In this document: one piece after another, positions 32,979 through 49,510 of the stretch | How positions within the stretch are numbered: the stretch's first letter is position 1 | Layout: the number at the start of each line of letters is the position of its first letter | Assembly: GCF_002944315.1 (NCBI RefSeq) | Contig: NZ_CP024314.1 | Coordinates: forward strand, 2,294,001-2,358,000 | Direction of reading: 5' to 3' | DNA length: 64,000 nucleotides | Origin: Rhizobium sp. NXC24 | GTDB taxonomy: Bacteria > Pseudomonadota > Alphaproteobacteria > Rhizobiales > Rhizobiaceae | Program-made: the position numbers and the translations under genes | Notes under the pieces: model-generated | Databases searched by the model: none | What the model was told of the DNA's origin: nothing | Seen by the model: the letters and a program-made list of their open reading frames with translations, nothing else

Positions 32979-33965
32979 ATGGAACTTATTGTCGCCCTTG
33001 GCCTGATCATCTTCAAGGTCGCGTTTCTGATTGCGATCCTTTTACTGCTGCCCTTGCCGCTGACCTGGCTGGAACGCAAGATTGCCGGGCACATGCAGCA
33101 GCGGATGGGCCCGATGCGCGTGGGGTGGCACGGGCTGCTGCAGCCGATGGCGGATGGGATCAAGCTCTTCACCAAAGAGGACCATATCCCTGCCGAGGCC
33201 GATCGCTTCCTGTTCAAACTGGCGCCAATACTGGCACTTGTCCCACCCTTTGTGGTGTTCGTCGCGATCCCGTTCGGCGAAACCGTCTCGGTTCTCGGCA
33301 CCAAGATCACGCTCTACGTCTCCAACATGAATGTGGCGATCCTGTTCGTATTCGCGGTGATCGGGATCGAGGTCTATGGCGTCATCTTCGGCGGCTGGGC
33401 CGCCAACAGCAAATATGCTGTCCTCGGCAGTCTCAGGACGTGCGCGCAGATGATCAGCTATGAGATCCCGATGGGGTTCTCGGTCATCGGCGTGGTGATG
33501 CTGGCGCAATCCATGAGTCTCCTTGAGATCGTGCGAGCGCAAGCCGATGTTTGGAACATCGTCTATCAACCGATCGGCTTCTTCGTGTTCTTCGTCGCCG
33601 GCCTGGCCGAAGCGCAGCGCATTCCCTTCGATTTGGCGGAAGCGGAAGGCGATCTAGGGGCCGGGTTCCATACCGAATACAGCGGCATCCGCTTTGCGTT
33701 CTTCATGGTCAGCGAATATGCCATCGTCTTGCTGGTGTCCGTCCTGGTGGTGATCCTATTCTTGGGCGGCTGGAACGGCATATTACTCCCCTTGCCGCCA
33801 CTCCTCTGGTTTCTGCTCAAGGTCGCGTTCGTCGTCTATTTGTTTATGTGGTTCCGCTTCACTTTCCCCCGTTACCGCTATGATCAACTGATGGCGATCG
33901 GATGGAAAGTCTTGCTTCCTCTGTCGATCGCGAACATAATCATAAGTGGTATCGCTTTCTTTTAG
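32979..33965 (+). CDS. nuoH: NADH-quinone oxidoreductase subunit H
   Basis: 328 residues, with about eight to nine membrane helices. Quinone-tunnel signatures are present: PLTWLERKIAGHMQQRMGPMRVGWHGLLQPMADGIKLFTKED (about residues 28-69, discussed here only by position), and the cytoplasmic loop IPFDLAEAEGDLGAGFHTEYSG near 215-236. It links the peripheral arm to the proton-pumping arm of complex I. In this window it stands apart from the other membrane subunits, on the opposite strand, followed by nuoI. Confidence 0.96.
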   Translation: MELIVALGLIIFKVAFLIAILLLLPLPLTWLERKIAGHMQQRMGPMRVGWHGLLQPMADGIKLFTKEDHIPAEADRFLFKLAPILALVPPFVVFVAIPFGETVSVLGTKITLYVSNMNVAILFVFAVIGIEVYGVIFGGWAANSKYAVLGSLRTCAQMISYEIPMGFSVIGVVMLAQSMSLLEIVRAQADVWNIVYQPIGFFVFFVAGLAEAQRIPFDLAEAEGDLGAGFHTEYSGIRFAFFMVSEYAIVLLVSVLVVILFLGGWNGILLPLPPLLWFLLKVAFVVYLFMWFRFTFPRYRYDQLMAIGWKVLLPLSIANIIISGIAFF

Positions 33966-33995
33966 GGGCCACGGCGGCTCCGCAGCGAGGCGACA

Positions 33996-34562
33996 ATGTC
34001 GCGCGCACAGGACAGACTTGGAACATGGATCGGCTGGGCATTCTTCGCCGATCTGGCGGGCGGCTTGGCTTTGACCTTCGGCTACATGTTCTCCAGATCC
34101 GTAACCATGCAATATCCTGACAAGGAAAAATGGCTGCCCTACTCGCGTTATCGTGGGCACCACTTCCTGACGCGCGACGACGAGGGTGAGATCAAATGCG
34201 TGGCCTGCGAACTCTGCGCCCGGATTTGTCCCTGCGACTGCATCGAAGTCGTCCCCTACGAGGATGCGAAGGGCAATCGGCACCCGGCAAAATTCGAGAT
34301 CGACACGGCCCGGTGCCTGTTTTGCGGGCTTTGCGAGGATGCCTGCCCCGCGGATGCGATCGCGCTTGGCCAGCAGTACGAATTCTCTAGTTTTTCCTCC
34401 CGTGACCTGGTGATCGGACGCGAGGATCTGCTCGGCAAGCCGGGCAAGGCGACAACCGGCGGCGGCGTGGTCGCTGCGCGCCTGAACGCCGGACAGGACG
34501 TTCGGGTCGAGACGAACGATCCGCAGGGTTACAACTGGTGGCGAAATATCCGGCGAACATGA
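33996..34562 (+). CDS. nuoI: NADH-quinone oxidoreductase subunit I (two 4Fe-4S clusters)
   Basis: 188 residues. Two full 4Fe-4S motifs are visible: Cys68, 71, 74, 78 and Cys107, 110, 113, 117, each with the proline after the fourth cysteine. These hold clusters N6a and N6b and pass electrons from NuoG to NuoB. The N-terminal part is an amphipathic anchor. It follows nuoH by 30 bp and precedes the CBS gene by 43 bp, forming a three-gene plus-strand unit convergent with nuoG. Confidence 0.95.
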   Translation: MSRAQDRLGTWIGWAFFADLAGGLALTFGYMFSRSVTMQYPDKEKWLPYSRYRGHHFLTRDDEGEIKCVACELCARICPCDCIEVVPYEDAKGNRHPAKFEIDTARCLFCGLCEDACPADAIALGQQYEFSSFSSRDLVIGREDLLGKPGKATTGGGVVAARLNAGQDVRVETNDPQGYNWWRNIRRT

Positions 34563-34605
34563 GCGCGCCCGCGGGCAAGCCGGAGCGCGCAGACAGGAGG
34601 CTCAG

Positions 34606-35046
34606 ATGCTTGTTTGCCAAATCTTGAAAACCAAATCGCCCGAGCTCATCTCGATCAGGCCAGATCGGCCCATGTTGGAGGTCCTGCGATTGTTTAGGGA
34701 AAACAACATCGGCTTCGTGGTCGTCGGCCGCAAACCGGGGGAATGCCTGGGTACGCTGTCGGAGCGGGACTGCTGCAATGCGGTGGCTGAATACGGAACC
34801 GAGGCTCCGATGATGCGGGTTGCCGACATCATGAACCGCAGGGTGGCGACCTGTTCGACACAGGATTTGCTGCCCTTTGTGATGGCGCTTATGACCAAAC
34901 GACGCACGCGCCATGTGTTGGTCATGGAGGGCGGCAGCCCTGTCGGGGTGGTGAGCATCGGCGACGTGGTCAAGCACCGGCTCGATGAATCGCTGCGCAA
35001 CGAGCAGGCACTGCATGATTATATTGCCGGAACCGGTTATCACTGA
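34606..35046 (+). CDS. Tandem CBS-domain protein
   Basis: 146 residues made of two CBS modules (about 8-62 and 78-135). PMLEVLRLFRENNIGFVVVG and DLLPFVMALMTKRRTRHVLV are the paired helices, and GVVSIGDVVKHRLDE is the typical end. CBS pairs bind adenine nucleotides (AMP, ATP, NAD-type ligands) and act as energy sensors. It is the last gene of the nuoH-nuoI unit, so an NADH- or adenylate-responsive role on this complex I is a reasonable guess, without direct proof. An RBS (AGGAGG) precedes the ATG by 7 bp. Confidence 0.88.
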   Translation: MLVCQILKTKSPELISIRPDRPMLEVLRLFRENNIGFVVVGRKPGECLGTLSERDCCNAVAEYGTEAPMMRVADIMNRRVATCSTQDLLPFVMALMTKRRTRHVLVMEGGSPVGVVSIGDVVKHRLDESLRNEQALHDYIAGTGYH

Positions 35047-35096
35047 TGATGCCGGCCTGATATAGAGACGCGGGACCAGGCTGGCAGTAGGAGCCC

Positions 35097-37688
35097 TCAG
35101 CGCAAGCTATTGGATTTTGCGTCTCCGTCGACGACCGTGGGAATCGCGAAGGTCGCGTACGCCTTTCGAACGTCGACGGGGCATGGATATTCGCCCCGCC
35201 GCATCAATGCGTTGAGGCGCAGAGCTCTGTAGTTTTCGGGAATGAATACGAGCCCTTCGGGAAAGCGCCTGTTGACCTTGAGCTTCGCCGTCAACTCGCC
35301 CCGAGCAGATCGCACGGTGACCTGATCAAGATCCGAAAGGCCGAGTTGAGCGGCATCCTGCGCGCTCATCTCGACATAAGGGTCATCTGCGACCGTATTC
35401 AGGATTTCCGAGCGCTCGGAGAGATACCCGTTGTGGAATAGGCAGTCTCCGGTGATGAGCATGAGCCGGTCGGCTGCTTTCGGCGCCGGTGGTGACGCGA
35501 AGAACTCGCCGGCCGGTATTGCGGGGACTGCCTTGGTGAATGCGCCATCGGCGCCAAGCCCCGCCTGTGTCAGCCCCTGATAGGCGGGAACCAATTGGGT
35601 AATCTCGGCAAAAATTTCGCCTTGTATCGATGGCCGCAAAGCTTGGTTGCGAAGCGCCGCGACGAAGTCGAAGATCGCCAGATTGCCTCGCGCCTCGAAG
35701 GCGGGTTCGCGAAATTTGCGGACCGTTTGAGTCCGGCCTTCATTATTGGTGAAGGTGCCGGTTTCTTCGCCGTAACCTGCCGCGGGTAGGACGACCTCGG
35801 CAAGACCCGCGGTATCCGTAAGGAAAGTGTCCTGCACGATCAGCAGATCGGCGGCGCCAAGCGCCCGGGTCACGAAATCCCTGTCGGGATAAGCGATCAG
35901 AGGATCGGCTCCGGCTATGTAAAGTGCGCCCATCTCCCCACTGACGCAGAGCTCCAACATGGCGTCGAGACCCGCGCCGGATTCAGACGGGATTTCGGTA
36001 CCCCAGCTCCGTGCGAGTGTGGCTCGCGCCGCGTCATCATGGATCGCCTGCAACCCCGGCAGAGCCGCCGGCAAAACCCCCATATCCCAGGCGCCCATCT
36101 GGTTGGCGCGGTCGAAGAGGAACTGCATTGCAGGGTTCTTGCCGAGCAGGCGGAGAACCCGCAGCAGGTTGTTGAGCTGTTGCAACGTCGCCCGCGCTTC
36201 GGGTGATCTCAGCAGCTCAATGCTGACGAGCACGCTGACGCTGCCGCCGTTATTGAGGGCTTCGACGAGGTGATCCGGCCGGTCATTGCCGGTACTCGCC
36301 GCCGATCTACCAATTTTTGCGCTGATGTCGGCCAAAGCGTCACGCTGCAAAGTCTGGTCGGCCGCTGCCAAGAGCCCGGTTACTACCGCCGCGAGGCTCG
36401 CCGGTTCTCCACCTGGGGAAACGCGAACGACCACCCGGGCATCGGCATCCAGACGGGATGGCCGCGCCGAAAGCATCAGCAATGCGGTATGTCGCCGCCG
36501 GGCGCCGTCCCGCAGCAGGTATTCGGTAACCGGGTTCTCTTCGGTGACGTTGCCGCCAACGATCAGCACGCAGTCATTGCCGATCATTTCCTCGAGCGGT
36601 GCGCGGCTGTAGAAGCTTGCCGCCAACGGGCCGAGTATATCGAAGGGCGTGGACCAGCGCGTCGAACAGTCAATGTTGTTGGTCCGGAACACCGTCCGCA
36701 TCAGCTTCTGGAACTGATACAGCACTTCATTCGGCAAACGCGGCGAGGCCAGCCCGCTGGCAGCCTTACTCTTGACGTCCGACAACCGCCGGCGCAGATA
36801 GTCCCCTGCTTCGTCCCAGGAAACCGGGACCAGGGCGCCATCGCGACGGATCATCGGCCGCTTGATCCGGTCTCTGCTCGAGACGAAATCCAGACCGAAG
36901 CGTCCTCGCACGCAGAGCGTTTCGCGGTTGAGCCCCTGATCCCACTTCGAGCGCACCCGCATGAACTCGCCCTTGCGCGTGCCCACCGTTAGCTGGCAAC
37001 CGGTGCCGCAATGCGGGCAGACAGTATCGGTTTCAACCAGATCCCAGGGCCGCGCCTTATAGCGATAGGGGAAGCTCATCAGCGCGCCGACCGGGCAGAC
37101 CTCGATGCAATTGCCGCACTGATCGCAACTCGCGAGGCTACCCTCGAAACCGGTGACGGCGGTATCCATGCCTTTTTCGACGGTTCCGAGCGCGACCGCG
37201 CCGACGACCTCCTCACACATCCGGACGCAGCGCTGGCACTGGATGCAGCGGTTGACGTTCATGATGATCACGGGGCTGAGGCGGATGTCCTTGGAGTGGA
37301 ACACACGCTTTTCATCGCGGAATCCACTTTCACGGGGCCCGTAGGCCATCACCATGTTCTGAAGCTCGCATTCGCCGCCCTTGTCGCAGATCGGGCAATC
37401 GAGAGGGTGGTTGGCGAGCAGCATGTCGAGCATCGAAGAGCGCGTTTCCTCAATGAGCGGCGTGGTCGTCCGTACCACCATGCCGTCGGTGACCGCGGTG
37501 GCGCAGGACGGCTGCAGCCGCCGCAGCCCCTCGATCTCCACCAGACACATGCGGCAGGAGGCCAGCGCCGGCAGGCGCTTCAGATAGCAGAAGGTCGGGA
37601 TATCGATGCCCAAACGCTGGGCGGCCTGCAGCACGGTCGAGCCAGCCTCAACTTCCAGCGTTTGTGTGTCGATCGTAATGCTAACCAT
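35097..37688 (-). CDS. nuoG: NADH-quinone oxidoreductase subunit G
   Basis: 863 residues. All iron-sulfur ligand sets are visible: 2Fe-2S Cys34, 45, 48, 62; the His94/Cys98/Cys101/Cys107 cluster; 4Fe-4S Cys148, 151, 154, 158 and 188, 191, 194, 198; and the extra N7-type set Cys224, 227, 231, 259. The rest is a molybdopterin-oxidoreductase-like domain that has lost the cofactor in this family. ATG 37688 follows GAGGAAGCC. It is the last gene of the minus-strand nuo cluster, 50 bp from the convergent CBS gene, with no clear terminator between. Confidence 0.95.
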   Translation of the reverse strand: MVSITIDTQTLEVEAGSTVLQAAQRLGIDIPTFCYLKRLPALASCRMCLVEIEGLRRLQPSCATAVTDGMVVRTTTPLIEETRSSMLDMLLANHPLDCPICDKGGECELQNMVMAYGPRESGFRDEKRVFHSKDIRLSPVIIMNVNRCIQCQRCVRMCEEVVGAVALGTVEKGMDTAVTGFEGSLASCDQCGNCIEVCPVGALMSFPYRYKARPWDLVETDTVCPHCGTGCQLTVGTRKGEFMRVRSKWDQGLNRETLCVRGRFGLDFVSSRDRIKRPMIRRDGALVPVSWDEAGDYLRRRLSDVKSKAASGLASPRLPNEVLYQFQKLMRTVFRTNNIDCSTRWSTPFDILGPLAASFYSRAPLEEMIGNDCVLIVGGNVTEENPVTEYLLRDGARRRHTALLMLSARPSRLDADARVVVRVSPGGEPASLAAVVTGLLAAADQTLQRDALADISAKIGRSAASTGNDRPDHLVEALNNGGSVSVLVSIELLRSPEARATLQQLNNLLRVLRLLGKNPAMQFLFDRANQMGAWDMGVLPAALPGLQAIHDDAARATLARSWGTEIPSESGAGLDAMLELCVSGEMGALYIAGADPLIAYPDRDFVTRALGAADLLIVQDTFLTDTAGLAEVVLPAAGYGEETGTFTNNEGRTQTVRKFREPAFEARGNLAIFDFVAALRNQALRPSIQGEIFAEITQLVPAYQGLTQAGLGADGAFTKAVPAIPAGEFFASPPAPKAADRLMLITGDCLFHNGYLSERSEILNTVADDPYVEMSAQDAAQLGLSDLDQVTVRSARGELTAKLKVNRRFPEGLVFIPENYRALRLNALMRRGEYPCPVDVRKAYATFAIPTVVDGDAKSNSLR

Positions 37689-37720
37689 GGCTTCCTCACG
37701 CGTCTCACCCAACGCTCTGC

Positions 37721-38986
37721 TCAGTGAAACGGACACCTCCGCTCCTCTATATGGGCGACGAATTCAGGCTCGAAATGCTGCAGCGCCGCCCTCAGCCCCA
37801 TGGCCGCGCCGTCGCCGAGCGCACAGAACGTATTGCCGAAAATGCCCTTGCAGAGTGCCTTTAACTGTTCCAGGTCGCCCGGTGCGCCCTCCCCGGCCTC
37901 AAGCCGGCGCAGCACCTTCACCACCCAGTTCAGCCCCTCGCGGCAAGGGGTACACTTGCCGCAGGACTCATGGTGGAAGAACTCGATGATCCTGGTGGCG
38001 ACCTTGACCACGCAGGTCGAGTCGTCGATCACGATCACCCCGGCCGAGCCTAGCATCGAGCCGACAGCCGCCAGCGAGTCAAAGTCCATTCCAACGTCCA
38101 GACCCCTTTCCGGGATCAGCGGCGCAGAAACGCCGCCGGGGATCACCGCCTTAATCTTGCGCCCGGGCAGCGCGCCACCGGCGTGCTCCTCGACCAGTTC
38201 GCGAAGCGGGATGCCCATCGGCAACTCGAAGAGGCCGGGTTTGCGCACCTGTCCGCTGAGGCAATAGAGCTTCGGGCCGGGGCTCTTCTCCGGGCCGATG
38301 CTGCGGAACCAATCAGGCCCTCGCATAACAATGTGCGGCACGCAAACCAGCGTCTCGACATTGTTGATAACGGTCGGGCTGGCATAGAGCCCGGCCACAG
38401 CGGGAAATGGCGGTTTCAGTCGCGGCTGAGCCCGCTTGCCCTCGAGCGACTCGAGCATCGCAGTCTCCTCGCCGCAGATATAAGCGCCTGCGCCGCCGTG
38501 AATGTGTACGGTGAAATTGAAGTCCGACCCCAGAATGCCCCTTCCGAGATAATGCTTTTCATGAGCCTCGGCGATCGCCTGCTCCAGGCGCCGTATCGCC
38601 GTTACATATTCTCCGCGAACATAAACATAGGCGATCTCGGCTCCAATTGCGTAAGCGCTAATTGCCAGCCCCTCGATGAGCTGATGCGGGTCACGCTCCA
38701 TGATGATCCGGTCCTTGAAGGTACCCGGTTCGCCTTCATCGGCGTTGCAGCACAGATATTTCGGCTTATCGGCCCGCTTCGGCACGAAGCTCCATTTCAT
38801 GCCCGTAGGGAATCCTGCACCGCCGCGACCACGCAGGTTGGACTTCTTGACGAGTTCGACGATCTCGTCGGGCGCGGACTCGCGCAGCACCTTTGCCAGC
38901 GCCTGGTAGCCACCGCCAGCCTCGTAGGTCGAGAGCAAATGGCCTTCGGGCATTCCGACATTTTTGAGTAGAACCTGCTCGAACAT
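37721..38986 (-). CDS. nuoF: NADH-quinone oxidoreductase subunit F (NADH/FMN site)
   Basis: 421 residues. The NADH-binding glycine loop GRGGAGFPTG is at 53-62; the FMN region includes CNADEGEPGTFKDR and GEETAMLESLEGKR; the 4Fe-4S cluster N3 is held by ESCGKCTPCREG near residue 350 and a further cysteine about 40 residues later. It accepts hydride from NADH and feeds electrons to NuoG, working with NuoE encoded 2 bp upstream. Confidence 0.96.
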   Translation of the reverse strand: MFEQVLLKNVGMPEGHLLSTYEAGGGYQALAKVLRESAPDEIVELVKKSNLRGRGGAGFPTGMKWSFVPKRADKPKYLCCNADEGEPGTFKDRIIMERDPHQLIEGLAISAYAIGAEIAYVYVRGEYVTAIRRLEQAIAEAHEKHYLGRGILGSDFNFTVHIHGGAGAYICGEETAMLESLEGKRAQPRLKPPFPAVAGLYASPTVINNVETLVCVPHIVMRGPDWFRSIGPEKSPGPKLYCLSGQVRKPGLFELPMGIPLRELVEEHAGGALPGRKIKAVIPGGVSAPLIPERGLDVGMDFDSLAAVGSMLGSAGVIVIDDSTCVVKVATRIIEFFHHESCGKCTPCREGLNWVVKVLRRLEAGEGAPGDLEQLKALCKGIFGNTFCALGDGAAMGLRAALQHFEPEFVAHIEERRCPFH

Positions 38987-38988
38987 GG

Positions 38989-39501
38989 CTACGCTCCCGG
39001 CGGTCGCACAGAGGCATGCTCAATGCTCGCTGCCCGCTCGGCTGTCGCCCGAAGGCGGTCCAAGAGTGCATCGATCCGCGCGATGTCGAGGTTTCCGTGA
39101 TAGTCGTCGCCGACCTGCATCGTCGGAGCCATTTCACAAGCGCCAAGGCATTCGACGGTCGAAAGCGTGAACAGCCCGTCCGGGGTGGTGTCGCCCTTTT
39201 TGATTCCCAGCACCGTTTCCAGATGCGTCAGCAGGCTCTCGGATCCGCACAGCATGCAGGAGACATTGTCGCAGAGCTGCAGGTGGAAAATCCCCACCGG
39301 CTCGGTATGGAAGTGGGTGTAGAAGGTCGCCAGTTCGTAGACCCAGATCCGCTCGACCCCGAGAATGTCTGCAACCTCTTCCAACACAGAGCCTGGCAGA
39401 TGGCCATGTTCCCTCTGGGCAATCAGAAGCGCGGGCATGATCGCCGAGCGCCGGTCGGGATACCGCACTGCCGCCTCTTCGATCTTTTCGCGCATGGTCA
39501 T
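38989..39501 (-). CDS. nuoE: NADH-quinone oxidoreductase subunit E (2Fe-2S)
   Basis: 170 residues from ATG 39501; a TTG at 39510 in the same frame is the alternative start and the RBS is weak for both. The thioredoxin-like fold carries cluster N1a at Cys77, Cys82, Cys118 and Cys122 (LCDNVSC and VECLGAC). It forms the NADH-oxidising tip with NuoF. It sits between nuoD and nuoF with gaps of 16 and 2 bp. Confidence 0.94.
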   Translation of the reverse strand: MTMREKIEEAAVRYPDRRSAIMPALLIAQREHGHLPGSVLEEVADILGVERIWVYELATFYTHFHTEPVGIFHLQLCDNVSCMLCGSESLLTHLETVLGIKKGDTTPDGLFTLSTVECLGACEMAPTMQVGDDYHGNLDIARIDALLDRLRATAERAASIEHASVRPPGA

Positions 39502-39517
39502 TGCGTCCAAATCCCTG

Positions 39518-40732
39518 CTACTTGTCCACCTCCGCCATCACGGGGTCGAGGCTGCCCAGCACGGCGATCATGTCCGCCAGGTAACGAGCGTTGGTGACCC
39601 CGAAAAGTGCCTGAAGGTTGACGAAGGAGGGTGCTCGCACCTTCATGCGGAATGGCTTTGGTGACCCGTCGCTGATGATGTAGAAGCCGAGTTCGCCCTT
39701 CGGCGCTTCGATCGCCGAATAGACCTCGCCCTTCGGCACCTTGAAGCCGTAAGCAGACAGGTCGAAATGCTGGATGAGCGCCTCCATCGAACAGTGCACC
39801 CGATCCTTATCCATCGGGAAGGCGATGGTCGGCATGTCGATCTGGAACGGCCCCTCGGGCATCTGCTCGATGCATTGCTCGATAATCCGGATGCTTTCGC
39901 GCATCTCATCGACCCGACACCTCCAGCGTGCGTAACAATCGCCCTCGCTGCGGGTGATGACGTTGAAATCGAGCCGGTCATAAATTTCATAGGGTTCGTC
40001 GCGCCGGATGTCCCAGTCGACTCCGGAAGCGCGCAGGTTCGGGCCACTCAAGCCGAGATCGATAGCGTCCTCGGCGGAGATCACGCCAACTCCTTCGGTG
40101 CGCTTGAGGAACACCCTATTTTTCTCGAGCAACCGCTCATAGTCGCGGATACGGTTCGGGAAGATGTCGCAGAACTCCCTGATCTTGGGCAGGAAGCCGT
40201 CAGGCAGGTCCTCGCGCAACCCGCCGACCCTGCAGAAGGAGGTGTGCATGCGTGCACCGGTAATCATTTCCATCAGGTCCATGATCATTTCGCGTTCGCG
40301 CATGGCGTAAAGGAGCGCGGTCATGGCGCCGAGGTCCATCGGCAACGCGCCAGTGATCAGGAGATGACCGGATATCCGCGCCAGCTCGGCCATCATCACG
40401 CGGACATACTGCGCCCTGAACGGTGCTTCTATGCCGAGGAGTTTCTCCACCGCCAGTGCAAAGGCCAGATTGTTCGAGGGCGGGCAGAGATAGTCGAGCC
40501 GATCCGTCAGCGGGAAAATCTGGGTATAGGTGAAGCTCTCCGCCAGCTTTTCGGTCCCGCGATGGAGGTAGCCGATATGCGGGTCTACGCGCTCGACGCA
40601 CTCGCCATCCAGCTCAAGGACGAGTCTGAGAACCCCATGAGTGCTGGGGTGCTGCGGGCCGAGATTGAGAAGCACTTCCCTGGTATTGAGCGCTTCGCCC
40701 TCTGGCCTGCTGAGCTCGGTGACTTCGGTCAT
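39518..40732 (-). CDS. nuoD: NADH-quinone oxidoreductase subunit D (49-kDa type)
   Basis: 404 residues, the usual length of a stand-alone NuoD. The quinone-site loop LGPQHPSTHGVLRLVLELDGE lies near residues 24-44 and the C-terminal RAPSFVNLQAL region near 365-375. I start at ATG 40732 because the longer open frame overlaps nuoC. NuoD with NuoB forms the quinone-reduction site. It is only 1 bp from the nuoC stop. Confidence 0.96.
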   Translation of the reverse strand: MTEVTELSRPEGEALNTREVLLNLGPQHPSTHGVLRLVLELDGECVERVDPHIGYLHRGTEKLAESFTYTQIFPLTDRLDYLCPPSNNLAFALAVEKLLGIEAPFRAQYVRVMMAELARISGHLLITGALPMDLGAMTALLYAMREREMIMDLMEMITGARMHTSFCRVGGLREDLPDGFLPKIREFCDIFPNRIRDYERLLEKNRVFLKRTEGVGVISAEDAIDLGLSGPNLRASGVDWDIRRDEPYEIYDRLDFNVITRSEGDCYARWRCRVDEMRESIRIIEQCIEQMPEGPFQIDMPTIAFPMDKDRVHCSMEALIQHFDLSAYGFKVPKGEVYSAIEAPKGELGFYIISDGSPKPFRMKVRAPSFVNLQALFGVTNARYLADMIAVLGSLDPVMAEVDK

Positions 40733-40733
40733 C

Positions 40734-41297
40734 TCAACTTTCCGGCGTAGAACGGACCCCCTGTGGAATGTCCCTGGTGGCGAGGTCCGGCTGCGTTGGC
40801 GGCGGGCCTTCGGCACCAAAGGGATTCAGCTTGTCCTTGTATCCGCGCAGGGGAAAATCCTTGCGCTGGGGAAACCCCGCGAAGCCCTCCCACATGTAGA
40901 TCCGGCGCAGGTCGGGATGCCCCTCGAACCTGATGCCATACATGTCCCAGGCCTCGCGCTCATGCCAGTTGGCCGTGCGCCAGACGCCTGTGACCGAGGG
41001 AAGCTGCGGTGGGTCGCCAAGCCGGCATTTGATGCGAACTCGCCACCTGTTGGATAGCGAATAGAGGTGGTAAACCGCTTCGAACCGCGGCGTTTCGGGA
41101 TAATGATCGACTCCGCAGATGTCCGAAAGAAAATTGAACTGCAGCGCCGGATGTTCTTTCAGGAATCGGCAGAACTCGACGATCGCGGCAGGTGGGACAG
41201 CAAAGGCATGAATGCCGTGGGCGACGCCGAGATCCTCGATTGCTTCTCCGAAACGCTCCATGATCAGGGCGGGATTGAGAGGCTGCTTCACGCTCAT
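40734..41297 (-). CDS. nuoC: NADH-quinone oxidoreductase subunit C (30-kDa type)
   Basis: 187 residues. The family signature [20 protein letters not shown] (about 123-142) and the following [19 protein letters not shown] are clear. NuoC is a separate protein here and not fused to NuoD. It overlaps nuoB by 4 bp. Confidence 0.95.
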
Positions 41298-41797
41298 GAC
41301 GTTGCAACCCGGTCCAGGGGCGTTCCGGCCAGCGCGCGGGACCTCTTGATCTTCTCCTGAAGCAGGAGGAAGCCATGCATCAGCGCCTCCGGCCGCGGTG
41401 GACAGCCGGGCACATGCACGTCGACGGGCACGAAGGTTTCCGACCCCTGCACCACGGCGTAGGTGTTGTAGACCCCGCCTGAAATAGCGCAGGTACCCAT
41501 TGCGATCACCCAGCGCGGTTCCGGCATCTGGTCATAAAGCCGCCGCACGACGGGCGCGAATTTCCGGGTCACAGTACCCGCGATGATCATCACATCGGAC
41601 TGTCGAGGCGAAGGACGGAACACCACGCCGAAGCGGTCAAGATCATAGCGAGCGCAACCCGCCGAAATCATCTCGATGGCGCAGCAGGCAATTCCGAAAG
41701 TCTCGGGCCACAGCGCCGACCTTCGACTCCAGCTAATAATGCTGTCGGCCGTTGTGAAAAGCACGCTGTCGCGGATCGCATTGTTTACGCCTCCCAT
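41294..41797 (-). CDS. nuoB: NADH-quinone oxidoreductase subunit B (cluster N2)
   Basis: 167 residues. The ligands of the terminal 4Fe-4S cluster N2 are Cys38-Cys39 (ACCAIEM), Cys103 (GTCAISG) and Cys132 (PGCPPRPE). ATG 41797 lies within the end of nuoA (13-bp overlap); a longer in-frame reading covers nuoA and is rejected. NuoB passes electrons to quinone. Confidence 0.96.
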
Positions 41798-42150: not shown

Positions 42151-42300
42151 AGCACACTGCACCGGTTACCCACTTGGAGGCTTTCCTCGGCAAACCGACC
42201 TCGTTTGGACCGGTAAGCGTCGCTCCGGAAAGCGGCTTGGGCAATCCTTTCTTGAATTGTCAGTTTATTCCGTCGGGCGGGTCATTGCAAATCCAATTGA

Positions 42301-43740
42301 TCAACCGCCAAACACCGAATGCTGGGCAAGCCTCAGAAACCACGATGGAAATAGGCCGATACCGATTGTACCGGCGGCGGTGAAGGCGAGCGTGGCGCGC
42401 ACCAATGGCGTCAGCGCCGGGGCGAAGGCCCTCCCTGGCTCGCGCATATAGATCACCATGACGATGCGGATGTAGAAGTAGGCGGCAACGGCGCTCAGCA
42501 GCACTGCGATCACCGCCAGCATGACGAAACCTCGCTCGACGAGCGCGACCAGCACGTAGAACTTGGCGAAGAACCCGGCCGTGGGCGGAATGCCGGCCAG
42601 CGAGAAGAGATAGAGCAGCATCAGAAGTGCCAGCCCCGGATGCGACTTGGCCAACCCCGCATAGTCTTCGATGACTTCGCCCGAAAAATCGCCATTCCGC
42701 ATCATGATGACGGTGCCGAAGATGCCGAGATTCATGAAAGAATAAATCAATAGGTAGAGCATCACGCTGGCGATGCCGTCCGGGCCGCCTGCCGCCACGC
42801 CAAAAATCGCGAACCCGGCATGGGCGATGCTGGAATAGGCCAGGAGGCGCTTGAAATTATCCTGCACCAGCGCCACGAAACTGCCGAGCGCCATCGTCGC
42901 CACCGCAATGACCGCAACGATGATCCAAACATTCGAGGCTGCAACGAGCGGATTGAGGAACACGCGCAGGATCACCGCGAACCCCGCAGCCTTGGGGCCA
43001 ACCGACATGAAAGCCGTGATCGTCGTCGGCGCGCCTTCGTAAACGTCCGGCACCCACATATGGAACGGGACCGCGCCGACTTTGAAGACCAGCCCCGCGA
43101 CGATGAAAACCACCGCCAGCAGTAATCCGGGGTCAAGCGGATTACCGGTCACTGCCGCAGCCATCCCGTCTAGCTGCGTCGTGCCGGTGAGCCCATAGAC
43201 AAGGGAAACGCCGAAAAGGAAAATCCCGGTCGAGACCGAGCCGAGGATCACATATTTAAGCGCCGCTTCGTTCGACCGACGCTGCTGGCGCAGGAACCCG
43301 GTCAGCACATAGGTGCAAAGCACCATCAGTTCGAGCCCCACATAGATCGACAGGAGATCGGTCGCCGAGGCCATGATCATCATTCCCGAAAGCGCGAAGA
43401 GCAGCAGGACATAGTATTCGCTGCTGCCGATCCCTTCGATATCGGCATATTTTCGTGAAAGGAGGAATGTCAGGATAGTGGCTAGGTAGAACACGAACTT
43501 GAAAAAGACCGCGAAGCGGTCGGCGATGAACATGCCTGCATAGGCCGGCCGCACCTCGCTCGCCAGCATGAGTGTCGCCAGGGCGGCGATCAGCACGACC
43601 ACGACGGAAGCCCAGACAAGGAAATATTCCTGCTCCTTTCGCACAAACTGTCCCAGGATCAGCAGGACGCAGGCTCCGGTGACCACCACGATCTCGGGTA
43701 TGCTCGCCAGGATCGACTGGAAAAGCGCGGCGTCGGTCAT
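42301..43740 (-). CDS. nuoN: NADH-quinone oxidoreductase subunit N (antiporter-like)
   Basis: 479 residues, about 14 membrane helices. The conserved Glu-bearing helix YVGLELMVLCTYVL and the Lys-bearing helix VFKVGAVPFHMWVPDVYEGAPTTITAFMS belong to NuoN-type pumps. It overlaps nuoM by 4 bp. One of four antiporter-type subunits in this cluster. Confidence 0.95.
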   Translation of the reverse strand: MTDAALFQSILASIPEIVVVTGACVLLILGQFVRKEQEYFLVWASVVVVLIAALATLMLASEVRPAYAGMFIADRFAVFFKFVFYLATILTFLLSRKYADIEGIGSSEYYVLLLFALSGMMIMASATDLLSIYVGLELMVLCTYVLTGFLRQQRRSNEAALKYVILGSVSTGIFLFGVSLVYGLTGTTQLDGMAAAVTGNPLDPGLLLAVVFIVAGLVFKVGAVPFHMWVPDVYEGAPTTITAFMSVGPKAAGFAVILRVFLNPLVAASNVWIIVAVIAVATMALGSFVALVQDNFKRLLAYSSIAHAGFAIFGVAAGGPDGIASVMLYLLIYSFMNLGIFGTVIMMRNGDFSGEVIEDYAGLAKSHPGLALLMLLYLFSLAGIPPTAGFFAKFYVLVALVERGFVMLAVIAVLLSAVAAYFYIRIVMVIYMREPGRAFAPALTPLVRATLAFTAAGTIGIGLFPSWFLRLAQHSVFGG

Positions 43741-45212
43741 TGGCCATTCCCCTCACCGTGTACGTGCGCCAGCAGATGCTTTACCGACACGTCTATGATG
43801 TTGAGAAAAGGTTTCGGGTAGAGCCCGACCCAAAGAACAAAGACGGCGAGCGGCAAGATCGCAGCCACTTCGCGGGCATTCACATCGCGTATCTTGAACC
43901 GGATGCCGACGCTGGGCGGACCGAGCGCGACTTTCCCATACATGCCAAGCAGATAGGCGGCACCCAGCAATGCGCCCAAAACAGCGGCCGCGCCGGCCGC
44001 CAGGTTGGTCGCAAACCCGCCCGACAGCACCAGCAACTCGCCCACGAACGAATTCGTTCCCGGCAGCGCCATTGATGACAGGGTGAACAGCGCGAGAAAC
44101 GCTGTGTAAACGGGCGCCACCTTCATCAGCCCGCCATAATCCGCGATGCTGCGAGTATGTGTTCGCTCGTAGATCAGGCCGACGAACAGGAACAACGCAC
44201 CCGTCGTTATGCCATGATTGAACATTTGCAGAATGCCGCCCTCGAGCCCACGAAGGTTCAGCGAAAAAATTCCCAGCGTCACGAAGCCCATGTGGCTGAT
44301 GCTGGAATAGGCCACCAGCTTCTTCAGATCGTCCTGCGCCAGCGCAAGCAACCCGCCATAGACGATCGCAAGCGCCGAAAGCCCCAGCATCAGCGGCCCA
44401 TAATACACCGACGCCTGCGGCAGCATCGGCAGCGAGAACCGCAGGAACCCATAGGCGCCCATCTTCAAGAGCACGCCGGCAAGGATGATGCTGCCCGCCG
44501 TCGGCGCCTGCACATGAGCGTCGGGCAGCCAAGTATGAAGCGGGACCATCGGCACCTTGACCGCGAAGGCGATCAGGAAGGCGAAGAATAGCCAGGACTG
44601 GAGCCGGAACGGCAAATCCTGTGCTGTGAGCGCAAGGATGTCGAAGGTCTTGCCGCCCTGGAGATAGAGCACGATGACACCGATCAGGAACAGAAGGCTG
44701 CCCGCCAGCGTGTAGAGGAAGAATTTGAACGCTGCATAGATCCGGCCGTCGCCGCCCCAGACGCCGATGATCAAATACATCGGGATCAGCATGGCCTCCC
44801 AGAAGACGTAGAACAAGAAGAGGTCGAGCGCGCAGAACACCCCCAGCATAAGAGCCTGCATGACCAGGAGACTGGCCATGAACCCCTTAACCTTGCGGTC
44901 GATCGCGACCCACGAGGCGAGTACGCAGATTGAGCCCAACAGCGCAGTCAGGAACACGAAGAGCGCGCTGATTCCGTCGATCCCAAGCGCATAGCTGATC
45001 CCGATTGCGGGCACCCACAGGCGCGTCTCGGTGAACTGCATCGCGTGGCTGGTGGTGTCAAAGTTCGCAAGCATGACGATGCAGAGAGCAAGGTCGAGAA
45101 TGGTGACGGTAAGCGCCGTCCAGCGCGCCGCTTCATCGCCGCGCAGAAACATCAGAACCGCAGCACCCGCGGCGGGCGTGAATACGATCAGGCTAAGAAG
45201 CGGGAATCCCAT
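43737..45212 (-). CDS. nuoM: NADH-quinone oxidoreductase subunit M (antiporter-like)
   Basis: 491 residues, about 14 helices. Proton-channel residues are all present: Glu139 (VFWEAMLIPMY), Lys219 (AVKVPMVPLHTWLPDAH) and Lys250 (LLKMGAYG). This makes it the canonical NuoM of the cluster. ATG 45212 lies 8 bp after the stop of the preceding NuoL-like gene; a 105-codon upstream reading overlaps that gene and is rejected. Confidence 0.95.
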   Translation of the reverse strand: MGFPLLSLIVFTPAAGAAVLMFLRGDEAARWTALTVTILDLALCIVMLANFDTTSHAMQFTETRLWVPAIGISYALGIDGISALFVFLTALLGSICVLASWVAIDRKVKGFMASLLVMQALMLGVFCALDLFLFYVFWEAMLIPMYLIIGVWGGDGRIYAAFKFFLYTLAGSLLFLIGVIVLYLQGGKTFDILALTAQDLPFRLQSWLFFAFLIAFAVKVPMVPLHTWLPDAHVQAPTAGSIILAGVLLKMGAYGFLRFSLPMLPQASVYYGPLMLGLSALAIVYGGLLALAQDDLKKLVAYSSISHMGFVTLGIFSLNLRGLEGGILQMFNHGITTGALFLFVGLIYERTHTRSIADYGGLMKVAPVYTAFLALFTLSSMALPGTNSFVGELLVLSGGFATNLAAGAAAVLGALLGAAYLLGMYGKVALGPPSVGIRFKIRDVNAREVAAILPLAVFVLWVGLYPKPFLNIIDVSVKHLLAHVHGEGNGQ

Positions 45213-45220
45213 CGCACCCC

Positions 45221-46996
45221 CTACCGCCACACCACGGCGAAGACGACGGTAGCTGCGATCACACCGACGATCATCGCCAGCGCATAATGGGTGACGACCC
45301 CGGTCTGGAGCCGCCGCAGCGCCCCGCCACCACGCAGAATCGAGCGAGCAACGCCGTTCACGGCGGCATCCACCCCGCTGAGATCGATCTGCAGTCCCGA
45401 TCGCGCCGCTCCATGCAGGAAGGGCAGGGCTGCGGTCTCGGACACGTCGCTCACCGCCTTCTCGTAGCGCGCCAGTGGTTTTTCGGCGAGCCACATGAAG
45501 AGCCGAGCGCCCTTGCGATAGAACCAATCAGTATCGATGCTGATCGTGTTCTCGGGATCGAGCGCCTTGAGGAACAGCACAAATCCCAGGGCGGTGAACA
45601 TCAAGAGGCCGAGGCTCTCAGTGACATGGAGGCCTGTGTAGGGTTCAAAGTCGACCGGATAAGGCAGAAGCGCATAGAGCGGCTGGGGGAACACTCCGAT
45701 CCCAATGCAGAGCACTGCCGCCATGGCCATTGCAACCAGCATGTTGCGTGGCGCCTCCCGCGCCTCGATTTTCCGATCCGTGCCGAAAAACATATAATAC
45801 GGCAGCTTGAGCCCGGTGTGCAGGAACGTTCCAGACGACGCCATCGTCAGCGCCAGCACTACCAGCGCCCGATGATCCGCTCCAGCGGCGGCTATCACCA
45901 TCGACTTGGTCACAAAGCCCGAGAAGAACGGAAACGCCGAGATCGCGAAAGCGCCGACCATGTAGAGTGCCACGGTAAGCGGCATGCTCTTGTAGAGGCC
46001 GCCAAGCTCGGTGAGCTTGCGCCGCCCGGTAACATAGATCACTGCGCCGGCTCCCATGAAGAGCAGGGCCTTGTAGAGGATATGCGCGAAGGCGTGGCTG
46101 GTGGCCCCATTCACGGCCATCTCCGTCCCGATGCCGATGCCCGCCACCATGTAGCCCACCTGGCTGACGATATGATAGGCCAGAAGCCGGCGGCAGTCGT
46201 TCTCCAGCACCGCGTAGATGACACCGTAAAGCGCCATTGCCGTGCCGAGCCAAACAAGAAGCTCGGTGCCTGGAAACGCCCGCGCCAGGGCATAGACGGC
46301 GGTCTTGGTGGTGAAGGCGCTCATGAACACCGCCCCGGTGACGGTCGCTTCCGGATAGGCATCGGTCAGCCAGGCATTGAGTGGCGGCACCGCTGCGTTA
46401 AGGATGAACCCGGCGAGGATCAGATAGGCGCCCACGCCCATTCCACCGTCGATCGGCCCCCACTCCATCGGGCCAAAGAGCAGCGAGCCGGTGGCGAGAC
46501 CATGGAGAATGATGCCGCCGAGCAGAACGACACCGCCGGTGATATGAACCATGAGATACCGGAACCCTGCCCGGATCGCCGGCCCGCCGCGCTGCGCGAA
46601 GACCAGGTAGGCGGAAGCGAATGCCATGGCCTCCCAGAACATGTAGAGGGTCAGGTAATCACCGGCGAACACCACGCCGAGCGCCCCGCCAACATAGATG
46701 AAGGCCGCCACGTGCTGACCAGCATCCGTCAGGTGCAGCGCATAGACCATGCCGATCAGCGCCATGATGGTGAAAACGGTAGCGAAGACGATGCTCAGCT
46801 TGTCGACCTTCGCGATCAGGATTTCCTGCCCGATGAACCGCATCTCGCCATAGCTACCCGGCTGCATCGCCAGCACGGCGAGGATCGCAAGCGCCGGGAT
46901 TACGAGCAAATAGGCCTTGCGGATCGACCCGCTGAGGAACGGGATCGGTAGAGCGCCCAGAATGAAGAGCAAAGCCGGATGGATGAAGTCAGTCAT
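45221..46996 (-). CDS. NuoL/MrpD-like antiporter subunit with C-terminal extension
   Basis: 591 residues. The antiporter core occupies about 1-470: Glu122 (MFWEAMAF) and Lys231 (FTTKTAVYAL) are present, but the position of the helix-7 channel lysine is Asn200 (LNAAVPPLNAWLTDAYPEA). The C-terminal 110 residues start with DTDWFYRKGARLFMWLAEKP and end in a last membrane helix, resembling the long lateral helix and final span of NuoL. It therefore probably holds the NuoL place in the complex, although the core is closer to MrpD-type proteins. It overlaps the 84-codon gene by 8 bp. Confidence 0.85.
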   Translation of the reverse strand: MTDFIHPALLFILGALPIPFLSGSIRKAYLLVIPALAILAVLAMQPGSYGEMRFIGQEILIAKVDKLSIVFATVFTIMALIGMVYALHLTDAGQHVAAFIYVGGALGVVFAGDYLTLYMFWEAMAFASAYLVFAQRGGPAIRAGFRYLMVHITGGVVLLGGIILHGLATGSLLFGPMEWGPIDGGMGVGAYLILAGFILNAAVPPLNAWLTDAYPEATVTGAVFMSAFTTKTAVYALARAFPGTELLVWLGTAMALYGVIYAVLENDCRRLLAYHIVSQVGYMVAGIGIGTEMAVNGATSHAFAHILYKALLFMGAGAVIYVTGRRKLTELGGLYKSMPLTVALYMVGAFAISAFPFFSGFVTKSMVIAAAGADHRALVVLALTMASSGTFLHTGLKLPYYMFFGTDRKIEAREAPRNMLVAMAMAAVLCIGIGVFPQPLYALLPYPVDFEPYTGLHVTESLGLLMFTALGFVLFLKALDPENTISIDTDWFYRKGARLFMWLAEKPLARYEKAVSDVSETAALPFLHGAARSGLQIDLSGVDAAVNGVARSILRGGGALRRLQTGVVTHYALAMIVGVIAATVVFAVVWR

Positions 46997-47243
46997 AATA
47001 ATCCTCGCGCCGCATCAGCCCGGCCCGATGGCCGAGAAACTTGGAAACGAAGATGATCAGTATGCAGGAGCCGAAGCCGTAGACGGCGGACCAGCCAGGC
47101 AGGCGGTCCCACAGATATTCGGCATGTTCGTGAGAGACCAGAAAGTCAGCCGCGACGATCAGAATGAGCACGAGATAGAATAGCCGGCGCCGGCGCCTCG
47201 CATATTCCTCGTCACCAAAGAAGTCGATGACACGCTTGATCAT
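46989..47243 (-). CDS. Small two-helix membrane protein inside the nuo cluster
   Basis: 84 residues. A charged N-terminal segment (FFGDEEYARRRRR) is followed by two hydrophobic helices (about 21-37 and 53-72) and a charged tail ending in MRREDYYD. I do not recognise a family. It overlaps the upstream MrpD-like gene by 4 bp and the downstream NuoL-like gene by 8 bp, so it is translated with them. Its position between two antiporter subunits suggests an accessory or linker subunit of the membrane arm; this is inference. Confidence 0.8.
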   Translation of the reverse strand: MIKRVIDFFGDEEYARRRRRLFYLVLILIVAADFLVSHEHAEYLWDRLPGWSAVYGFGSCILIIFVSKFLGHRAGLMRREDYYD

Positions 47244-48703
47244 TTGACCACTCCGTCGGCCAGGGTAAGGAAATAGCCGGGAAAGATGCCCATCAGCACC
47301 GACAGGATGGCGGTCGCGACGAGCGGGATCGTGACCATAGGGATTTCACGGATCGTCGCCGGGTTTTCCTCCGCCTCCGCCCCGAAAAAGGCGGCATAGC
47401 TGACTGGCAGGAAGTAGGCAGCATTCAGGATCGAGCTCACCAGGAGCACGGCCAGGAACGCGATCTGCCCTGCCTCCACGGACCCCAAAGTCAGATACCA
47501 CTTGCTGATGAAGCCCGCGGTCGGCGGTATCCCGATCATGCTCAGCGAAGCGATGAAAAATGCGCCCATCGTCCATGGCAACCTGCGGCCGATGCCCGCC
47601 ATGTCGCTGATGTTGCGCTTACCGGACGCGCAATAGATCGACCCCGCGCAGAAAAACAGTGTGATCTTCGAGAATGCGTGGGCAGCCATGTGGATAATGC
47701 CGCCAACCATCGCGACCGGCGACAGCAGAACCGCACCCAACACGATGTAGGAGAGCTGGCTAACTGTCGAATAGGCGAGCCTCGCCTTAAGGTCGTCTCG
47801 CGTCAGGGCATAGATCGACGCCATGAGGATCGTAAACGAGACCAGATAGGCCGTGGCGATGCCGAGGCCGAGCTCCCCGACCAACTTGACGCCAAAGACA
47901 TGAAACACCACTCGCAGCAGGCAAAACACGCCCATCTTGACCACGGCCACGGCATGCAAGAGCGCGCTGACCGGCGTCGGCGCCACCATCGCGGCAGGCA
48001 GCCAGGCGTGCATCGGCATCACCGCGGCCTTGGCGAAGCCGAAGAGATAGCAGAAATAGACGATCGTCAGCAGCGCCGCCGAGGCATTGACGCCCGCCAA
48101 CAGCCCGCCCTCCCTAAAATCGAGCGATCCCGCAATGGAGTAGGTCAGTGCCAGCGCGGCGAGCAGGACGCTTTTCGAGGCTCCCATCAAATAGACGAGA
48201 TATTTGTGGGCACCCCTCCACCCCTCTTCATCCTCGTGGTGATAGACAAGCGGATAGGTAACGAGGCTGAGCACCTCGTAGAAGATGACCAAGGTGAACA
48301 GATTGGCGGCGAAGGCACCCCCGACAGCCGCCGCGAGGCTGGTGGCGAAGCAGGCGAAGAAGCGGGTCTGCGCATGTTCGTTCAAGTGCCGCATATAGCC
48401 GATGGAATAGAATGCGGCCACGATCCATAAAAGCGACGAGATAGTGGCGAACACCATGCCGAGCGCGTCGGCCCGGAAAGCGAACTCGACCCCCGGCAAG
48501 ATTTCGAACAGGCGCAAGTCGACGGTCCCGCCCGCCAGCACCGTCGGCGCCATTGAAGCGACAATCGCAAACAGAACAATTGCTGCTATTGGCGATACGA
48601 TATCGCGGAGTTTCTCGCGGTTGTTCAGAAGCAGAATTATTAGGGCCGCCAGGCCTGGGACGGCGACGGCAAGCAGTGGCCGGATCGATATCACCGGGTC
48701 CAA
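47240..48703 (-). CDS. MrpD-like proton/cation antiporter subunit (extra pump subunit)
   Basis: 487 residues, about 14 helices and no NuoL-type C-terminal extension. Channel residues are Glu143 (FYEVLSL), Lys225 (FAKAAVMPMHAWLP) and Lys256 (VVKMGVF), with the segment AMVAPTPVSALLHAVAVVK shared by MrpA/MrpD/NuoL. The start is TTG at 48703 with AAAGGA 8 bp upstream. It lies between nuoK and the 84-codon gene, giving the complex a fourth antiporter-type subunit. Confidence 0.88.
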   Translation of the reverse strand: MDPVISIRPLLAVAVPGLAALIILLLNNREKLRDIVSPIAAIVLFAIVASMAPTVLAGGTVDLRLFEILPGVEFAFRADALGMVFATISSLLWIVAAFYSIGYMRHLNEHAQTRFFACFATSLAAAVGGAFAANLFTLVIFYEVLSLVTYPLVYHHEDEEGWRGAHKYLVYLMGASKSVLLAALALTYSIAGSLDFREGGLLAGVNASAALLTIVYFCYLFGFAKAAVMPMHAWLPAAMVAPTPVSALLHAVAVVKMGVFCLLRVVFHVFGVKLVGELGLGIATAYLVSFTILMASIYALTRDDLKARLAYSTVSQLSYIVLGAVLLSPVAMVGGIIHMAAHAFSKITLFFCAGSIYCASGKRNISDMAGIGRRLPWTMGAFFIASLSMIGIPPTAGFISKWYLTLGSVEAGQIAFLAVLLVSSILNAAYFLPVSYAAFFGAEAEENPATIREIPMVTIPLVATAILSVLMGIFPGYFLTLADGVVK

Positions 48704-48707
48704 GCCG

Positions 48708-49010
48708 CTATCCTTTCATCATGGTAACGTCGTCGACCTTGAGGGTGGATTTGTTCCTCACAAGGGCGACCAGGATACCGAGGGCGACGGCAACCTCCGC
48801 CGCGGTAATTGCAATGACGAAGATCGCGAAGATCTGCCCGCGGAAATCGTCGTATTGACGTCCAAAAGCGATGAAGTTGATGTTGACCGAGTTGAGCAGT
48901 AGTTCCAGCGACATCAGCACGACCAGAATATTGCGCCTGAGCAGCACGCCCGCTGCTCCGATCACGAAGAGGATCACTGCGAGCAAAATATACCACCAGA
49001 GCGGAACCAT
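48708..49010 (-). CDS. nuoK: NADH-quinone oxidoreductase subunit K
   Basis: 100 residues with three helices. Glu35 in the [15 protein letters not shown] helix and Glu71 in [13 protein letters not shown] are the conserved membrane glutamates of NuoK. Its start overlaps the nuoJ stop by one base. Confidence 0.95.
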
Positions 49011-49510
49011 CAGCTCGACTCCTTCCGCGCCAGAACGATAGCCCCGATCAGTGCCGCCAGCAGAATGACAGAGGCGACTTCAAACGGCAGAAGATAGTCG
49101 GAAAAAAGTGTCGTGCTGAGCTGCCTAATCTCATCGCCGCCACGCGCAACGACGGGCTCCGTGGCCAAAAAGCGCGGGCTCCGGAGAACCAGCACGAGCA
49201 TCTCGACGCCAAGCAGAACGAGCAGCACCAGAGCCGGCAGATTGCCACCCGGCAAGAACCGCTGCAACACCGCTTCGCGCACATCAATCATCATGATCAC
49301 GAATAGGAACAGGACCATGATCGCGCCGACATAGACGAAGATCTGGATGGCCGCGAGCAACGGCGCCCCGAGCAAGACGAAAATTGCGGAAACCTGCAGG
49401 AAACACGCCATCAGCGCCAATGCGCTGTGAACCGGATTGCGCGCCACGACGACCATCAGGGCCGCGATCACGGACACCGTAGCGAACAGAAGAAAGAACC
49501 CCTGATCCAT
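49010..49510 (-). CDS. nuoJ: NADH-quinone oxidoreductase subunit J
   Basis: 166 residues, five helices; [25 protein letters not shown] and the [18 protein letters not shown] helix are the NuoJ hallmarks. It is the first gene of the minus-strand cluster, so the promoter should lie in the 189 bp up to 49699. GGGAGGG lies 8 bp before the ATG. Confidence 0.95.

What the first reader, a model, noticed from the sequence alone, without database searches (positions are those of the whole stretch)
32979..49510. Rearranged complex I cluster with a fourth antiporter-type pump subunit
Seen: all 14 Nuo functions are present, but in the order J, K, MrpD-like, 84-aa protein, NuoL/MrpD-like, M, N, A-G on one strand, with H and I separated on the other strand. 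Instead of three antiporter-like subunits there are four (47240-48703, 45221-46996, nuoM, nuoN). Known: modified complex I cassettes with an additional pump subunit have been reported in other bacteria and are thought to change the proton/electron ratio. Inference: this cluster encodes a distinct, possibly higher-ratio or cation-coupled complex I, perhaps for a low-potential or symbiotic condition.
Basis: partly seen in the sequence, partly recalled or inferred. Interest (0 to 1): 0.72.

Follow-up and report, generated by a model that had tools for sequence, protein, structure and literature searches.

The report
Rhizobial complex I with Mrp pumps
This is a second respiratory complex I, already described in root-nodule bacteria as "green complex I", in which two parts related to a sodium/proton antiporter stand in for one normal pump part; one of the two looks like a connecting piece and may not pump.

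Summary
In detail: a complete complex I set with four antiporter-like subunits, in the order J-K-D1-x-D2-M-N-A-G, with H-I(-CBS) convergent. The kind is not new: it is the rhizobial "green complex I" (Degli Esposti & Martinez Romero 2016, seen only through later papers). Four plasmid relatives show the same full order, and J-K-D1-x-D2-M-N is contiguous in 80 of 80 relatives kept. The genome also has a canonical nuoL-M-N.

Three results go further. (1) D1-x-D2 also ends a separate Mrp-type antiporter cluster (25 of 25 distant loci read); green D2 nests within that family, so the module most likely moved from Mrp into complex I. (2) Green D2 is a chimera: Mrp-type body, NuoL-type last ~45 residues (14 of 14 tested), which argues that it docks in complex I. 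(3) Green D2 has Asn where pump subunits have the TM7 lysine (84 of 84 loci), so D1, M and N keep full residue sets and D2 does not. Sequence therefore does not support a higher H+/e- ratio. nifH co-occurs more than expected, yet 9 of 16 carriers in a 247-genome sample lack it. No structure could be predicted.

The parts
49010..49510 (-). nuoJ, 166 aa
   Evidence: PF00499, 137 bits; same place in S. meliloti
48708..49010 (-). nuoK, 100 aa
   Evidence: PF00420; NCBIfam NuoK over cut-off
47240..48703 (-). D1, 487 aa, Mrp-type antiporter-like subunit with a full set of pump residues
   Evidence: PRK08375.1-1, 842 bits; residues 84 of 84 loci; tree
46989..47243 (-). x, 84-aa small membrane protein (two hydrophobic stretches read by eye), always between D1 and D2
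   Evidence: no Pfam or NCBIfam family; 80 of 80 green loci and 25 of 25 Mrp-type loci
45221..46996 (-). D2, 591 aa, Mrp-type body with NuoL-type tail; stands in NuoL's place
   Evidence: PRK12668, 785 bits
46397..46399 (-). codon of D2 Asn200, at the TM7 lysine position
   Evidence: Asn in 84 of 84 green loci
45224..45361 (-). D2 residues 546-591, NuoL-type end of helix HL and last transmembrane helix
   Evidence: identity 28% to NuoL against 14% to Mrp-type D2; profile test
43737..45212 (-). nuoM, 491 aa (start inferred from S. meliloti)
   Evidence: TIGR01972, 629 bits
42301..43740 (-). nuoN, 479 aa
   Evidence: TIGR01770, 519 bits
41785..42150 (-). nuoA (start inferred)
   Evidence: order and similarity to annotated S. 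meliloti
41294..41797 (-). nuoB (start inferred)
40734..41297 (-). nuoC
39518..40732 (-). nuoD (start inferred)
38989..39510 (-). nuoE
37721..38986 (-). nuoF
35097..37736 (-). nuoG ORF (true start probably 37688), with an extra Molybdop_Fe4S4 domain and a Molydop_binding domain
   Evidence: Pfam
32979..33965 (+). nuoH
   Evidence: PF00146, 401 bits
33996..34562 (+). nuoI
   Evidence: TIGR01971 over cut-off
34606..35046 (+). CBS-pair protein that goes with H and I
   Evidence: PF00571, two stretches; also in L092-L095 and L100-L101

Best explanation
The cluster encodes the rhizobial green complex I, an NADH:quinone oxidoreductase in which NuoL has been replaced by a module, D1-x-D2, that came from an Mrp-type antiporter. 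D2 acquired a NuoL-type tail and sits in NuoL's place next to NuoM; D1 joins D2, with the help of x, most likely as a new outer end of the membrane arm (D1-D2-M-N). Electrons pass from NADH through F, E, G, I and B to quinone at B/D/H; the energy runs along the arm and drives protons through N, M and probably D1, while D2, which lacks the TM7 lysine, acts mainly as adaptor and relay. Shown here: gene content and order, common descent with the Mrp module, the NuoL-type tail, the missing lysine, a canonical nuoL-M-N elsewhere. Inferred: assembly into one complex, place of D1, role of x, and that D2 does not pump.
For: Order kept in 80 of 80 relatives for J-K-D1-x-D2-M-N and overlapping genes. 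D1-x-D2 shared with Mrp-type clusters in 25 of 25 distant loci, Pfam-named in two of them. Trees: green D1 with Mrp-type D1 100/100, green D2 with Mrp-type D2 100/100; green D2 one clade inside the Mrp-type family. NuoL-tail profile 34.9-43.7 bits on 14 of 14 green tails against -1.5 to 9.1 on 77 of 77 Mrp-type tails. TM7 Asn in D2 84 of 84, TM7 Lys in D1, M and N 84 of 84 each; mutation of this lysine in E. coli NuoL, M or N led to loss of function (PMC3046159, passage). Spacing of the last two membrane helices near that of NuoL.
Against: No protein or activity data. D2 keeps TM5 Glu and TM8 and TM12 Lys, so some conduction is possible. Counted from a motif, HL is 25 residues longer than in two NuoL (74 against 49), which would place D1 between D2 and M. 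PMC9040806 reads the extra subunit as an extra pump (passages). The nesting rests on a Lys-type outgroup that is not one side of a branch (two further rows lie with it). No structure prediction ran.
Confidence: 0.6

Rival explanations
1. A higher-ratio complex I: all four antiporter-like subunits move a proton, about 5 H+ per NADH.
For: Four antiporter domains in one operon; this is the reading of PMC9040806 (passages); D2 keeps TM5 Glu and TM8 and TM12 Lys in 84 of 84.
Against: TM7 Asn in D2 in 84 of 84 loci, at a lysine whose mutation costs function in E. coli (PMC3046159).
Confidence: 0.25
2. D1 lies between D2 and NuoM and D2 reaches over it with a lengthened helix HL, as proposed for complexes with a second NuoM.
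For: From a D-x-D-W motif to the last helix green D2 has 74 residues, two NuoL have 49.
Against: From TM15 to TM16 the spacing is 111 in 12 of 14 green D2 against a median of 102 in 30 NuoL; PMC3274701 describes the whole stretch between these helices as the HL (passages); PMC9040806 reports that the 26-aa insert of 'Ca. Manganitrophaceae' MrpD2 is absent from rhizobia.
Confidence: 0.2
3. A cation-coupled complex I: D1-x-D2 moves Na+ or K+ in exchange for protons, driven by the redox part.
For: The module belongs to an Mrp-type antiporter family; TM7 of Mrp-type D2 is often Asn as well (14 of 25).
Against: MrpB, C, E, F and G and the third antiporter-like subunit are not beside the module here; no ion data.
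Confidence: 0.1
4. D1-x-D2 is a separate Mrp-type antiporter that merely lies in the nuo operon.
For: Its relatives exist in clusters without nuo genes (25 of 25 distant loci).
Against: NuoL-type tail of D2; order kept in 80 of 80 and in a distant genome as far as read; otherwise the complex would have no NuoL.
Confidence: 0.05

Closest known systems
Green complex I of rhizobia (Degli Esposti & Martinez Romero 2016; not held, known here through PMC9040806 and PMC7415380)
   Same: Two MrpD-like subunits in place of NuoL, rearranged gene order, present beside a canonical complex I, in Rhizobium and Sinorhizobium.
   Different: No difference found. The NuoL-type tail, the TM7 Asn and the Mrp-type source are additions here; I could not check whether the 2016 paper has them.
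Complex_I_3 of 'Ca. Manganitrophaceae' (PMC9040806, passages)
   Same: Two MrpD-like subunits, reported there as closest to the rhizobial ones.
   Different: Has a second NuoM and, in MrpD2, a 26-aa insert reported absent from rhizobia. Its sequences were not examined here.
Nitrospira 2M complex I (Chadwick et al. 2018; not held, known through PMC9040806)
   Same: A fourth antiporter-like subunit.
   Different: There the extra subunit is a second NuoM and NuoL has an HL insert; here NuoM is single and NuoL is absent.
Mrp-type cluster with split MrpA and three antiporter-like subunits (L105-L129)
   Same: D1-x-D2 in the same order and family.
   Different: Has MrpE, F, G, B, C and a third antiporter-like gene (Pfam in L129 and L117) and no nuo gene labelled above 35% identity; its D2 is 19 residues shorter in HL and has another C-terminus.

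Membership tests
Rhizobial green complex I | Two MrpD-like subunits in place of NuoL | tested here: met
Rhizobial green complex I | Rearranged gene order shared with known carriers | tested here: met
   same full order in S. meliloti, Phyllobacterium, R. jaguaris and CB3171
Rhizobial green complex I | Present beside a canonical complex I | tested here: met
   NuoL over the TIGR01974 cut-off at C1:1470616-1472586, with two further antiporter-domain genes behind it; the other canonical subunits were not sought
Rhizobial green complex I | Additional 4Fe-4S site in NuoG (legend in PMC4967309) | tested here: met
   Molybdop_Fe4S4 domain in NuoG; cluster binding itself not testable
Rhizobial green complex I | Induced in symbiosis | not testable with these tools
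   reported in PMC7415380 (passages)
Complex I with a second NuoM (2M) | Second NuoM | tested here: not met
   one NuoM; D1 and D2 do not group with NuoM
Complex I with a second NuoM (2M) | Insert of about 26 aa in HL | tested here: inconclusive
   +25 by one count, about +9 by another
Mrp antiporter | MrpB, C, E, F and G with the antiporter-like subunits | tested here: not met
   the genes beside D1-x-D2 are nuoJ, K, M, N
Mrp antiporter | Antiporter-like subunits of Mrp descent | tested here: met

The most novel reading that the evidence does not exclude
D2 is a captured, non-pumping adaptor: an Mrp subunit without its TM7 lysine that acquired NuoL's docking tail and so couples an Mrp-derived pump (D1) to complex I. 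Complex I can then gain a subunit without gaining a proton, and the published 5 H+ reading of this type is wrong.
Probability: 0.35. Interest if true: 0.65.

Novelty: already known. Interest (0 to 1): 0.4.

Why it matters
How complex I sets its proton count is an open question. This natural variant has four antiporter-like subunits, one of which lacks a residue that E. coli cannot spare, in genetically tractable rhizobia; this genome also carries a canonical NuoL-M-N for comparison. The transfer of a module from an Mrp antiporter into complex I, with NuoL's tail kept, also bears on how the two families exchange parts.

Tried and rejected
The 2016 paper, Chadwick 2018 and evv239 are not held, so I cannot say whether the chimera or the TM7 Asn is in print. 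Literature searches whose listings did not show either. Passages of PMC8879329, PMC12361115 and PMC9568556 had nothing on this cluster. PMC7268258 (passages) argues that complex I is probably impaired in acidified symbiosomes, which speaks against a simple role in nodules.

FixK-type box: one match with a mismatch in the window, at 61937, none at the nuo promoters. No sigma-70-like or terminator-like site in 49400-49720.

I first took the 74-against-49 motif count (note 3) to mean a lengthened HL with D1 between D2 and M. I dropped it as the main reading when the TM15-TM16 spacing came out near canonical. That call used simple hydropathy: 2 of 14 green rows and at least 15 of 77 Mrp-type rows were miscalled, and E. 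coli NuoL came out as 89 because TM15 gave two peaks.

Considered and rejected: D2 as a broken NuoL (it fits its own family over the cut-off); D1 or D2 as a second NuoM.
Full report
What is there. The window lies at C4:2294001-2358000 of a 7.3-Mb genome in four contigs. On the minus strand, 49510 down to 35097, run nuoJ, nuoK, D1, x, D2, nuoM, nuoN and nuoA-G; on the plus strand, convergent, nuoH, nuoI and a CBS-pair protein. Four proteins carry Proton_antipo_M. D1 and D2 fit the NCBIfam models PRK08375.1-1 and PRK12668 over their cut-offs and stay far below the NuoL model. Elsewhere the genome has a NuoL over the TIGR01974 cut-off followed by two antiporter-domain genes, which I take for nuoM and nuoN, at C1:1471009-1475390, and two more at C1:1141532-1145634, which I take for mrpA and mrpD from size and sequence without a family scan.

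It is a known kind. The scan with D1 found 161 relatives in species genomes and kept the best 80; by their titles these are Rhizobium, Sinorhizobium/Ensifer, Mesorhizobium, Phyllobacterium, Microvirga, Bosea and kin. J-K-D1-x-D2-M-N is contiguous in 80 of 80, and 74 of 80 go on through A-G within the stretch held. Of the other six, one stops at a contig end (L020), three have 2.2 to 4.3 kb between N and A (L017, L066, L086), and in two no A-G was found in the 5 kb held behind N (L044, L063). S. meliloti and Phyllobacterium (annotated) and R. jaguaris and CB3171 (not annotated) show the full order with convergent CBS-I-H, 4 of 4. [quoted passage not shown] PMC7415380 reports from the same source a peculiar gene order, about 70 Alphaproteobacteria with two operons, and induction in symbiosis (passages). 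The 2016 paper is not held.

Where D1-x-D2 comes from. A search with x in 397 genomes of the order matched in 74: 6 at 82-100% identity, the window's included, and 68 at lower identity. I fetched 30 places: the 5 other close ones and 25 of the 68. The 5 are green clusters. In the 25, D1, x and D2 follow one another with a third antiporter-like gene before them (25 of 25 by the labels; in L106 and L110 reading frames overlap), and an MrpA-like short gene was labelled in 24 of 25 (L112 ends with its contig). Weak labels to nuo queries also occurred there, none above 35% identity, and I take them for Mrp relatives or chance. Pfam names MrpE, MrpF, MrpG and MbhD/E in L129, and MrpB, MrpC and the three antiporter-like genes in L117; the other 23 loci were not scanned. 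A tree of 65 core sequences, from 15 of the 25 loci, puts green D1 with Mrp-type D1 (100/100), these with NuoL and MrpA-N (100/95), and green D2 with Mrp-type D2 (100/100); M and N go with NuoM and NuoN. Long branches of single reference rows are flagged there. A tree of 53 D2 bodies, rooted on Lys-type rows, has green D2, with the distant L176, as one clade (100/99), sister to 13 short-HL rows (100/100) and inside the family; the outgroup is not one side of a branch, two further rows lying with it. One sister, P0245, has the protein and contig length of L110, whose cluster I read; the other database rows have no context. So the module most likely moved once from an Mrp-type cluster into complex I.

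D2 is a chimera. Along the window's D2, mean identity to 77 short-HL D2 is 35-75% per 40-residue block up to residue 480, 31% at 481-510 and 14% at 546-591; identity to 30 NuoL is 28% at 546-591 and 39% at 556-585; residues 511-545 match neither. A profile of NuoL tails gives 34.9-43.7 bits on 14 of 14 green tails and -1.5 to 9.1 on 77 of 77 short-HL tails; the reverse profile gives 0.9-9.4 on green tails; profile comparison gives 97.8% against 1.1%. P0328 (longer helix region) and one row with a shorter one were left out of these sets. In E. coli the last helix anchors HL in the inner part of the arm (PMC3274701, passages), so a NuoL-type tail argues for docking in complex I.

Pump residues. 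In 84 of 84 green loci (80, 4 plasmid loci) D1 keeps TM5 Glu, TM7 Lys, TM8 His and Lys and TM12 Lys; M and N keep theirs; D2 keeps TM5 Glu and TM8 and TM12 Lys but has Asn at TM7. The Asn is in 120 of 120 listed close relatives, the window's own included, and can be read in the distant L176. In Mrp-type D2 the position varies: 14 Asn and 11 Lys in the 25 loci, and 73 Asn, 4 Lys and 1 Ser in 78 short-HL database rows. D1 of the Mrp-type loci has Lys in 23 of the 23 aligned; two over-long frames were left out. Mutation of this lysine in E. coli NuoL, M or N led to loss of function (PMC3046159, passage). So three subunits have complete sets, as in ordinary complex I. This speaks against counting four pumps without excluding it.

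Geometry. The last two membrane helices are 111 residues apart in 12 of 14 green D2, against a median of 102 in 30 NuoL and mostly 79-91 in short-HL D2 where called (miscalls are told under Tried and rejected). Counted from a D-x-D-W motif, green D2 has 74 residues (10 of 12 measured) where two NuoL have 49. I prefer the first measure, which puts D1 at the outer end; the second would put it between D2 and M. Without a structure this stays open.

Symbiosis. In 247 genomes of the family, 16 have a close x (E at most 1e-20), 14 have nifH over its cut-off, 7 have both (Fisher odds ratio 24.9, p = 3e-6, relatedness not controlled). In the 397-genome sample 2 of 6 close-x genomes have nifH over the cut-off, against 65 of 397 in all. 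Of 40 named carriers (the first 40 of 80), 22 have nifH. Here nifH lies on another contig, C3. So carriers are often diazotrophs, but the complex is not confined to them.

A wider range. A search with the window's NuoN in 289 genomes of the class gave, besides the own one, two genomes of another family at 66-67%, each with a second match at 44-45%; the next best genomes have 45% or less over most of the list. G849 has K-D1-x-D2-M-N-A-G, the NuoL-type tail and the Asn (L176, L177); the contig of G728 is cut within D2 (L175). In neither were H and I found beside G in the stretch read.

Verdict. A sound observation of a described system. What may be new are the chimera, the missing lysine and the Mrp-type source; whether any of these is in the 2016 paper I could not check.

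Noticed in passing
window 34606-35046: A CBS-pair protein is co-encoded with nuoH and nuoI in the window, L092-L095 and L100-L101; a possible nucleotide sensor of this complex.
   Followed up: partly
window 50475-52730: A 751-aa protein with two BPD_transp_2 permease stretches in tandem, between an ABC ATPase (49700-50482) and a periplasmic binding protein (52811-53992): a two-in-one permease of a sugar-type importer.
   Followed up: no
L017, L066, L086, L044, L063: Extra DNA between nuoN and nuoA: 2.2, 3.3 and 4.3 kb in three, and no nuoA within 5 kb in two. The J-to-N block stays whole.
   Followed up: partly
L175, L176: A distant green-type cluster in another family of the class, without H and I beside G in the stretch read, and with only a weak CBS-like neighbour (24%).
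   Followed up: partly
P0328: A D2-like protein with a still longer HL region (87 by the count that gives 73 in green D2) but an Mrp-type end; context unknown.
   Followed up: no
G000:C3:107782-109368 and C3:212677-213501: A NiFe-hydrogenase large subunit and nifH lie on contig C3, not on C4 with this cluster.
   Followed up: no
L105-L129: An Mrp-type cluster with a split MrpA and three antiporter-like subunits occurs in many families of the order, also in genomes of about 1.3-1.6 Mb.
   Followed up: partly
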